A stretch of DNA of 10,542 bases from the NCBI GenBank assembly GCA_016186945.1, contig JACPKR010000044.1, forward strand, positions 1 to 10,542, in the 5' to 3' direction. Numbering within the stretch: the first letter of the stretch is position 1; each line of letters opens with the position of its first letter. Positions 5,558-6,655 of the stretch are shown one piece after another. The notes beneath the pieces were generated by a model. It searched no databases. It was not told where the DNA came from and was given only the letters and a program-made list of their open reading frames with translations. The position numbers were made by a program, and so were the translations under genes. The stretch comes from Deltaproteobacteria bacterium (GTDB taxonomy: Bacteria > Bdellovibrionota_B > Oligoflexia > Oligoflexales > Bog-1112).

Positions 5558-6655
5558 ATGGTCTCAGGCGCGCAACTTTTTCAGGTAAGTGACGAGACTT
5601 TTAGAAATTGGCGTTGGCAGATGGCCCACCAATTGCGGACTCGGGAGGATTTTCCCGAGGCATTCAGTTTAGCTCCTGAGGAAATTCAGGGTCTTGAGCA
5701 GTTGGGCGGTGTGTTCCGCACAGGCGTTACTCCTTATTATGCGTCGCTTATGGACTTCACGAAGCCCTCTTGCCCCCTCCGCCTTCAGGCGATCCCCCGG
5801 ATCGAAGAAAAGGAAGATCCCCTGGGCGTGGCCGATCCATTGGACGAGCGCCTGCATTCGCCCGTTCGGGAAGTCGTGCATCTTTACCCAGACCGAGTGG
5901 CTTTCTGTGTCGCCATGCTCTGTCCTGTTTATTGTCGTTATTGTTATCGCAAGCGTCGTGATGAGGAAGAGGGCCTGCATTTCAATCGTAAGATTGTAGA
6001 GCGCGGCTTAGAGTATATCCGACAGACACCTTCGATCAGGGACGTTCTGATAACCGGCGGTGATCCATTCATTGCCTCCGACGAAAGTTTAGAAAGCTTG
6101 CTGGCTCAGCTGCGATCCATCCCACACGTCGAGATTATACGGTTTGGAACCCGCACGCCTGTCACTCTTCCCTTTCGGATTACAAAAGAACTTTCCCAGA
6201 TGCTGGCGAAATATCACCCCGTGTGGCTCAACACTCACTTCAATTGCGAGGAAGAGCTGACGCCTGACGCCGCCCAGGCGCTCACCTACCTGGTCGATGC
6301 GGGTATCCCGGTGGGGAATCAGGCTGTGCTCCTGCGGGGAGTGAATGATGACGCGGGGCGAATGAAAACCCTCTGCCAAAAGCTAATCCGCCTCCGCGTC
6401 CGACCCTACTATGTTTTTCATCCCCACCTTGTGAAGGGCACCGCCCACCTGCGCACCTCCGTGAAAGAAGGTCTGGCGATAATGAAATCGCTCCGCGGGC
6501 AAATCTCCGGTTTTGCGATCCCTACGTATATCGTTGACACCCCGTCGGGGAAAGTTCCCGTTGCGCACAACCATATCCTGGGAACAGACGGTGACGACCT
6601 GCTTCTGGAAGATTTGAAAGGTGACGTTTGGCGGGAAAAAGGAGCATGGACCTGA
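5558..6655 (+). CDS. radical-SAM aminomutase, KamA/EpmB-type
   Basis: A 365-residue PLP-dependent radical-SAM enzyme resembling lysine 2,3-aminomutase, which shifts an amino group from alpha to beta carbon. The [4Fe-4S]/SAM motif CxxxCxxC is Cys122, Cys126, Cys129 (CPVYCRYC); the SAM-binding GGDP is 167-170. The start FQVSDETFRNWRWQMAHQLRT matches the family N-terminus. The PLP lysine is most likely Lys332 in DTPSGK, shorter than the PGGGGK of lysine aminomutase. In Clostridium lysine aminomutase two aspartates (293 and 330) bind the substrate's side-chain amine; here the second is Asp327, but the first is His290 (FHPHL in place of YQCDL), so the substrate may not be lysine. I chose ATG 5558 because everything upstream in frame (from 5381) is repeat sequence; this start has no visible ribosome site. 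The gene overlaps the amidotransferase gene downstream. Confidence 0.85.
   Translation: MVSGAQLFQVSDETFRNWRWQMAHQLRTREDFPEAFSLAPEEIQGLEQLGGVFRTGVTPYYASLMDFTKPSCPLRLQAIPRIEEKEDPLGVADPLDERLHSPVREVVHLYPDRVAFCVAMLCPVYCRYCYRKRRDEEEGLHFNRKIVERGLEYIRQTPSIRDVLITGGDPFIASDESLESLLAQLRSIPHVEIIRFGTRTPVTLPFRITKELSQMLAKYHPVWLNTHFNCEEELTPDAAQALTYLVDAGIPVGNQAVLLRGVNDDAGRMKTLCQKLIRLRVRPYYVFHPHLVKGTAHLRTSVKEGLAIMKSLRGQISGFAIPTYIVDTPSGKVPVAHNHILGTDGDDLLLEDLKGDVWREKGAWT

What the first reader, a model, noticed from the sequence alone, without database searches (positions are those of the whole stretch)
6419..6553. Aminomutase with His in place of a substrate-binding Asp
Alignment by motif gives His290 at the position of Asp293 of lysine 2,3-aminomutase, while the Asp330 position is kept (Asp327) and the PLP lysine loop is shortened to TPSGK. 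The known glutamate 2,3-aminomutase has, as I recall, Lys and Asn at these two positions. A His/Asp pair fits neither, so the enzyme may act on a different amino acid or on a bound substrate.
Basis: partly seen in the sequence, partly recalled or inferred. Interest (0 to 1): 0.6.

Follow-up and report, generated by a model that had tools for sequence, protein, structure and literature searches.

The report
Aminomutase with altered substrate pocket
A group of little-studied bacteria (Oligoflexia) carry a version of the enzyme that turns lysine into beta-lysine with one of its two substrate-gripping acidic residues replaced by histidine, and in most of these bacteria it is the only candidate to supply the beta-amino acid thought to switch on translation factor EF-P.

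Summary
The window (an Oligoflexales genome) encodes an intact KamA-family radical SAM aminomutase (5558-6655, +). It aligns without gaps to lysine 2,3-aminomutase (LAM, 2A5H): Asp293 is His290, Asp330 is Asp327, and the PLP-lysine loop is two residues shorter. This is a clade trait. His is kept in every Oligoflexales ortholog read; Gln replaces it in Silvanigrellales, Zixibacteria and Spirochaetaceae. In the tree the His/Gln group is one supported branch inside a short-loop clade with arginine aminomutase BlsG and an Asp/Asp Firmicutes group, apart from glutamate aminomutase (Lys/Asn, verified), LAM and EpmB. The short loop alone is therefore not diagnostic. This protein is the only KamA-family member found in its genome, which also has EpmA, EF-P with the PGKG lysine and a class I LysRS, and lacks AblB. 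Four relatives without the His/Gln type have LAM-, EpmB- or AblA-like enzymes instead. Best explanation: a non-orthologous EpmB, a lysine 2,3-aminomutase feeding EpmA (confidence 0.52, untested). A different substrate is not excluded: relatives in the short-loop clade are paired with a D-Ala-D-Ala-ligase-like ATP-grasp gene, a pairing not found beside the Oligoflexales His-type genes.

The parts
5558..6655 (+). KamA-family radical SAM aminomutase, 365 aa from ATG 5558 (424 aa if read from ATG 5381)
5921..5944 (+). Radical SAM CxxxCxxC motif (Cys122, Cys126, Cys129)
   Evidence: invariant columns in A1; aligns with LAM Cys125/129/132
5948..5950 (+). Arg131, equivalent of LAM Arg134 (substrate carboxylate; role from general knowledge)
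   Evidence: Arg in every sequence aligned
6425..6427 (+). His290 at the LAM Asp293 position
6536..6538 (+). Asp327 at the LAM Asp330 position, retained
6542..6553 (+). Short PLP-lysine loop P-S-G-K; Lys332 = LAM Lys337
5411..5553 (.). 143-bp dispersed element with about 30-nt terminal inverted repeats, inserted directly upstream of the ATG at 5558; context, not part of the enzyme
6646..7227 (+). TrpG/PabA-type glutamine amidotransferase whose likely start overlaps the aminomutase stop; neighbour, not conserved

Best explanation
The protein is a PLP- and SAM-dependent KamA-family 2,3-aminomutase that does the job of EpmB in Oligoflexia. It moves the alpha-amino group of lysine to C3, and EpmA attaches the beta-lysine to the PGKG lysine of EF-P. 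The distal amino group would be held by Asp327 alone, with His290 (Gln in Silvanigrellales) as a neutral hydrogen-bonding partner instead of a second Asp. Shown by sequence: fold, cofactor motifs, His/Asp pair, clade-wide conservation, sole KamA copy, presence of EpmA and EF-P lysine. Inferred: the substrate, the role of His290, the link to EF-P.
For: Own genome: one KamA-family protein, EpmA over the TIGR00462 cut-off, EF-P with PGKG, class I LysRS so EpmA is not standing in as LysRS, no AblB. The clade pattern holds: most of 58 Oligoflexia genomes have EpmA and a KamA-family protein, all 29 EF-P loops read are PGKG, and EpmA Ala298 is invariant in the nine aligned (its role in beta-lysine choice is recalled, not checked). 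Published comparison: beside about 200 genomes with both EpmA and EpmB, only two had EpmA alone (PMC2821294), so Oligoflexales would need a stand-in. Where the His/Gln type is missing, the KamA present is EpmB-like (G009), LAM-like (G018; G054, which also keeps an AblA-like one) or AblA-like (G003), all Asp/Asp or Asp/Glu. G007 has the His type plus a second KamA that sits beside the ATP-grasp ligase. Two outlying Gln-type genomes (Zixibacteria, Spirochaetaceae) also have EpmA, in the spirochaete next to a PGKG EF-P.
Against: No conserved linkage to efp or epmA. Not EpmB by model (208 bits against 369) nor by tree. Silvanigrellales mostly carry a second, Asp/Asp KamA that could be the beta-lysine source there. 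The Latescibacterota and Bacteroidota members showed only LysRS, no EpmA. Co-absence of EpmA and KamA across 58 genomes is weak (Fisher one-sided p 0.047; many incomplete MAGs, rows related). G026 has the KamA but no EpmA found. The nearest characterised relative in the tree is BlsG, which acts on arginine.
Confidence: 0.52

Rival explanations
1. It is a 2,3-aminomutase for an amino acid other than lysine (arginine, glutamine, ornithine or another polar amino acid), whose beta-product goes to an unknown peptide or metabolite.
For: The clade is sister to BlsG arginine aminomutase (99/90 for BlsG plus His/Gln group). His and Gln are found nowhere else in the family sampled. Short-loop relatives in Firmicutes, a spirochaete and a Bacteroidota genome are directly next to a D-Ala-D-Ala-ligase-like ATP-grasp gene, implying a beta-amino-acid-containing peptide. 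Some Oligoflexia keep an unlinked ligase of that branch (G015, G022, Silvanigrellales).
Against: The only D-Ala ligase found in the window genome groups with canonical Ddl, and no His/Asp locus has the ligase beside it. Lysine-type enzymes in G009, G018, G054 and G003, which lack the His/Gln type, would be odd if the slot were not lysine.
Confidence: 0.27
2. It converts alpha-lysine already attached to EF-P by EpmA into beta-lysine on the protein.
For: This order was proposed as one of two options for YjeK (PMC2821294). A reshaped pocket and lack of most of the LAM C-terminal domain (Pfam LAM_C matched only to position 49 of 127) would leave room for a tethered substrate.
Against: EpmA Ala298, recalled as a beta-lysine selectivity residue, is conserved. 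An attached lysine still has the same distal amine, so it does not explain the His.
Confidence: 0.08
3. It is a glutamate or acidic-amino-acid aminomutase with His replacing the EAM Lys.
For: TIGR04368 is the best-scoring equivalog model (407 bits), and His can bind a carboxylate.
Against: Far below the 650-bit cut-off, with LAM at 396 and BlsG at 386 bits. EAM's Asn partner is Asp here, which would repel a carboxylate. The EAM clade is separate at 100/99.
Confidence: 0.05
4. Neutral drift: His is a tolerated change in an ordinary lysine aminomutase used for something unrelated to EF-P, such as lysine metabolism.
For: Asp, Gln and His occur along one lineage with Asp330 always kept.
Against: Invariance of His across the order argues against drift; AblB absent.
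Confidence: 0.08

Closest known systems
Lysine 2,3-aminomutase (KamA/AblA; 2A5H)
   Same: Fold (Z 43), radical SAM motif, Arg134, Asp330, PLP lysine; about 44-45% identity
   Different: Asp293 is His; PLP loop two residues shorter; lacks most of the C-terminal LAM domain; below TIGR03820 cut-off; separate clade
EpmB (YjeK), EF-P beta-lysylation
   Same: KamA family; co-occurs with EpmA and EF-P PGKG; sole KamA in genome; proposed same job
   Different: Asp/Glu pair, long loop, distant branch, 208 of 369 bits, no efp linkage here
Arginine 2,3-aminomutase (BlsG)
   Same: Short loop; nearest characterised branch in the tree
   Different: Asp/Thr instead of His/Asp; 386 of 600 bits; antibiotic cluster context
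Glutamate 2,3-aminomutase (EAM)
   Same: Best-scoring equivalog model; YIFHPK stretch resembles YVFHPH
   Different: Lys/Asn pair, long loop, separate 100/99 clade
Short-loop KamA paired with Ddl-like ATP-grasp ligase (Firmicutes; no published description found in the held library)
   Same: Same short-loop clade (100/98), Asp330 kept
   Different: Asp/Asp pair; ligase gene adjacent, absent beside the window gene

Membership tests
KamA family radical SAM (TIGR00238) | Score above curated cut-off 199.2 | tested here: met
   320 bits
KamA family radical SAM (TIGR00238) | CxxxCxxC, PLP lysine, carboxylate Arg | tested here: met
Lysine 2,3-aminomutase (TIGR03820) | Score above 525.4 | tested here: not met
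   396 bits
Lysine 2,3-aminomutase (TIGR03820) | Asp293 and Asp330 | tested here: not met
   His/Asp
Lysine 2,3-aminomutase (TIGR03820) | Lysine 2,3-aminomutase activity | not testable with these tools
   needs anaerobic assay
EpmB (TIGR03821) | Score above 369.3 | tested here: not met
   208 bits
EpmB (TIGR03821) | Groups with E. coli EpmB in tree | tested here: not met
EpmB (TIGR03821) | Genome has EpmA and EF-P with Lys34 | tested here: met
EpmB (TIGR03821) | Linkage to efp or epmA (common, not universal) | tested here: not met
Glutamate 2,3-aminomutase (TIGR04368) | Score above 650 | tested here: not met
   407 bits
Glutamate 2,3-aminomutase (TIGR04368) | Lys/Asn pair | tested here: not met
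Arginine 2,3-aminomutase (TIGR04468) | Score above 600 | tested here: not met
   386 bits
Arginine 2,3-aminomutase (TIGR04468) | Asp/Thr pair of the one BlsG compared | tested here: not met

The most novel reading that the evidence does not exclude
The His/Asp and Gln/Asp enzymes make a beta-amino acid other than beta-lysine, and Oligoflexia either decorate EF-P with it through EpmA or build an unknown beta-peptide from it.
Probability: 0.17. Interest if true: 0.78.

Novelty: new variant of a known kind. Interest (0 to 1): 0.47.

Why it matters
KamA enzymes are assigned a substrate largely by two pocket residues. Here a whole class of bacteria has a fixed, different pair and no canonical EpmB in most genomes, yet keeps EpmA and a modifiable EF-P. 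If the enzyme makes beta-lysine, the two-Asp rule for assigning substrate is too strict and EF-P beta-lysylation is wider than EpmB-based surveys show. If it does not, there is a new aminomutase substrate. Either outcome follows from one assay.

Tried and rejected
Gene neighbourhood as a clue: Oligoflexales share only housekeeping neighbours, named by eye (Maf-like, Nth-like, ferredoxin-like, aminopeptidase-like; not model-checked), none informative. Overlap with trpG in the window and with a chorismate-mutase-like gene in the same-genus G001 hints at aromatic metabolism but is not shared by others; left as weak. The class II aaRS-like gene at 3154-3990 looked like an EpmA partner, but the genome has a proper EpmA elsewhere and that gene resembles AsnRS-type domains only weakly. 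N-acetyl-beta-lysine osmolyte route: AblB not found in 11 genomes. The KamA-linked ATP-grasp ligase was sought in the window genome; the only hit groups with canonical Ddl. Literature: no held paper names Asp293/Asp330 of LAM, BlsG with aminomutase, or KamA with a D-Ala ligase.

Full report
Observation. ORF 5381-6655 (+) encodes a KamA-family radical SAM protein (TIGR00238 320 bits). Residue numbers count from Met at 5558. Pairwise alignment with 2A5H covers LAM 8-362 and puts His290 on Asp293, Asp327 on Asp330, Lys332 on Lys337 and Arg131 on Arg134. The AlphaFold2 model superposes on 2A5H (Z 43.0, 2.5 A, 342 residues).

Origin. The genome is 2.66 Mb in 76 contigs, 91% complete. Named relatives of the protein are Oligoflexales MAGs (71% identity to isolate bog_1112, 68% to an Oligoflexales MAG), so the window is from Oligoflexales, an inference from relatives.

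Clade. I collected orthologs from relatives, 80 named loci and references: E. coli EpmB, BlsG, B. velezensis AblA. State at 293/330: LAM Asp/Asp; EAM Lys/Asn (36 sequences); EpmB Asp/Glu; BlsG Asp/Thr; short-loop Firmicutes Asp/Asp; Silvanigrellales, Zixibacteria, Spirochaetaceae and one Bacteroidota Gln/Asp; Oligoflexales His/Asp; one Latescibacterota His/Asp. Reading further loci gave His in every Oligoflexales ortholog and Gln in every Silvanigrellales one; one locus (L169) was not caught by the text pattern, but the same gene reads His in L053. A maximum-likelihood tree of 63 sequences puts all His/Gln sequences on one branch (98/93), sister to BlsG (99/90), within a short-loop clade (100/98); EAM is its own clade (100/99); EpmB is remote. 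Columns 293 and 330 were left in the tree, a small effect. Long branches (EpmB, BlsG) make their exact place less sure.

Who uses the product. The own genome has a single KamA-family protein at E 1e-15, EpmA at C43 (297 bits, cut-off 286.9), EF-P at C37 with QHVNPGKGSAF, and a class I LysRS at C37, so the EpmA-like enzyme is not the cell's LysRS. AblB is absent. Across 58 Oligoflexia genomes EpmA-type hits are present in 55 by my reading of frame length and score and KamA in 50. Co-absence gives Fisher p 0.047 one-sided, not corrected for relatedness or incompleteness. More telling are replacements: G009 has an EpmB-like enzyme only, G018 a LAM-like one only, G003 an AblA-like one only, G054 a canonical LAM plus an AblA-like one. 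The published observation that EpmA rarely occurs without EpmB (two exceptions against about 200 genomes with both; PMC2821294) makes the His/Asp protein the natural stand-in. I rate that at 0.52, since the substrate was not tested.

A second partner in the wider clade. In all seven short-loop Firmicutes loci, and in one spirochaete and one Bacteroidota Gln-type locus, the aminomutase gene is directly adjacent to a D-Ala-D-Ala-ligase-like ATP-grasp gene. In the Firmicutes read in detail the ligase gene ends immediately before, or overlaps, the aminomutase. G007 (same family as the window) has this ligase beside its second KamA, and keeps the His-type KamA separately. In the window genome only canonical Ddl was found. 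This suggests an older role in making beta-amino-acid peptides and a shift of use in Oligoflexales. It also keeps open the rival that the substrate is not lysine.

Gene start. Bases 5411-5553 are a 143-bp element with about 30-nt inverted ends and at least 40 copies at 94-99% in the genome. It lies 4 bases before the ATG at 5558 with an imperfect 8-base flank repeat (AGCGATGG/AGCAATGG). The frame stays open through it to ATG 5381, so a 59-residue N-terminal extension is possible. The enzyme domain itself is intact.

Verdict. It is a new variant of a known kind.

Noticed in passing
window 5411-5553; partial copy 142-211; diverged 1469-1538: MITE-like element, 143 bp, about 30-nt terminal inverted repeats, at least 40 copies at 94-99% identity in the genome, sometimes lying in frame at the start of ORFs (for example the C37 lipoprotein-like ORF), so it may add N-terminal sequence to host genes.
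   Followed up: partly
L071, L073, L074, L075, L077, L087, L090, L068, L069, L179: KamA gene directly next to a D-Ala-D-Ala-ligase-like ATP-grasp gene, in L071 downstream of MurQ-like and NagK-like genes (named by eye): a possible beta-amino-acid dipeptide system. No description found in the held library.
   Followed up: partly
window 3154-3990 (-): 278-aa class II aminoacyl-tRNA-synthetase-like protein (PF00152, E 1e-12) matching no NCBIfam model, weakly AsnRS-like, without an anticodon domain.
   Followed up: partly
L182 (G043) about 2500-3950; L215: EpmA homologs of about 460-480 aa with an extra N-terminal region of about 150 residues that looks OB-fold-like by eye, in Silvanigrellales and Zixibacteria.
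   Followed up: no
L036 4938-6454: In the same-genus genome the aminomutase overlaps a chorismate-mutase-like gene close to HtpX and class I LysRS; in the window genome that block instead follows efp-accB-accC (L261).
   Followed up: partly
window 7405-8736 (+): Adenosine-deaminase-like protein in which only the C-terminal part matches known models (TIGR01430 at residues 347-431), with a weak match to RADAR RdrB.
   Followed up: no
G016: Oligoflexales genome (90% complete) with neither EpmA nor any KamA-family protein found, yet EF-P keeps PGKG.
   Followed up: no
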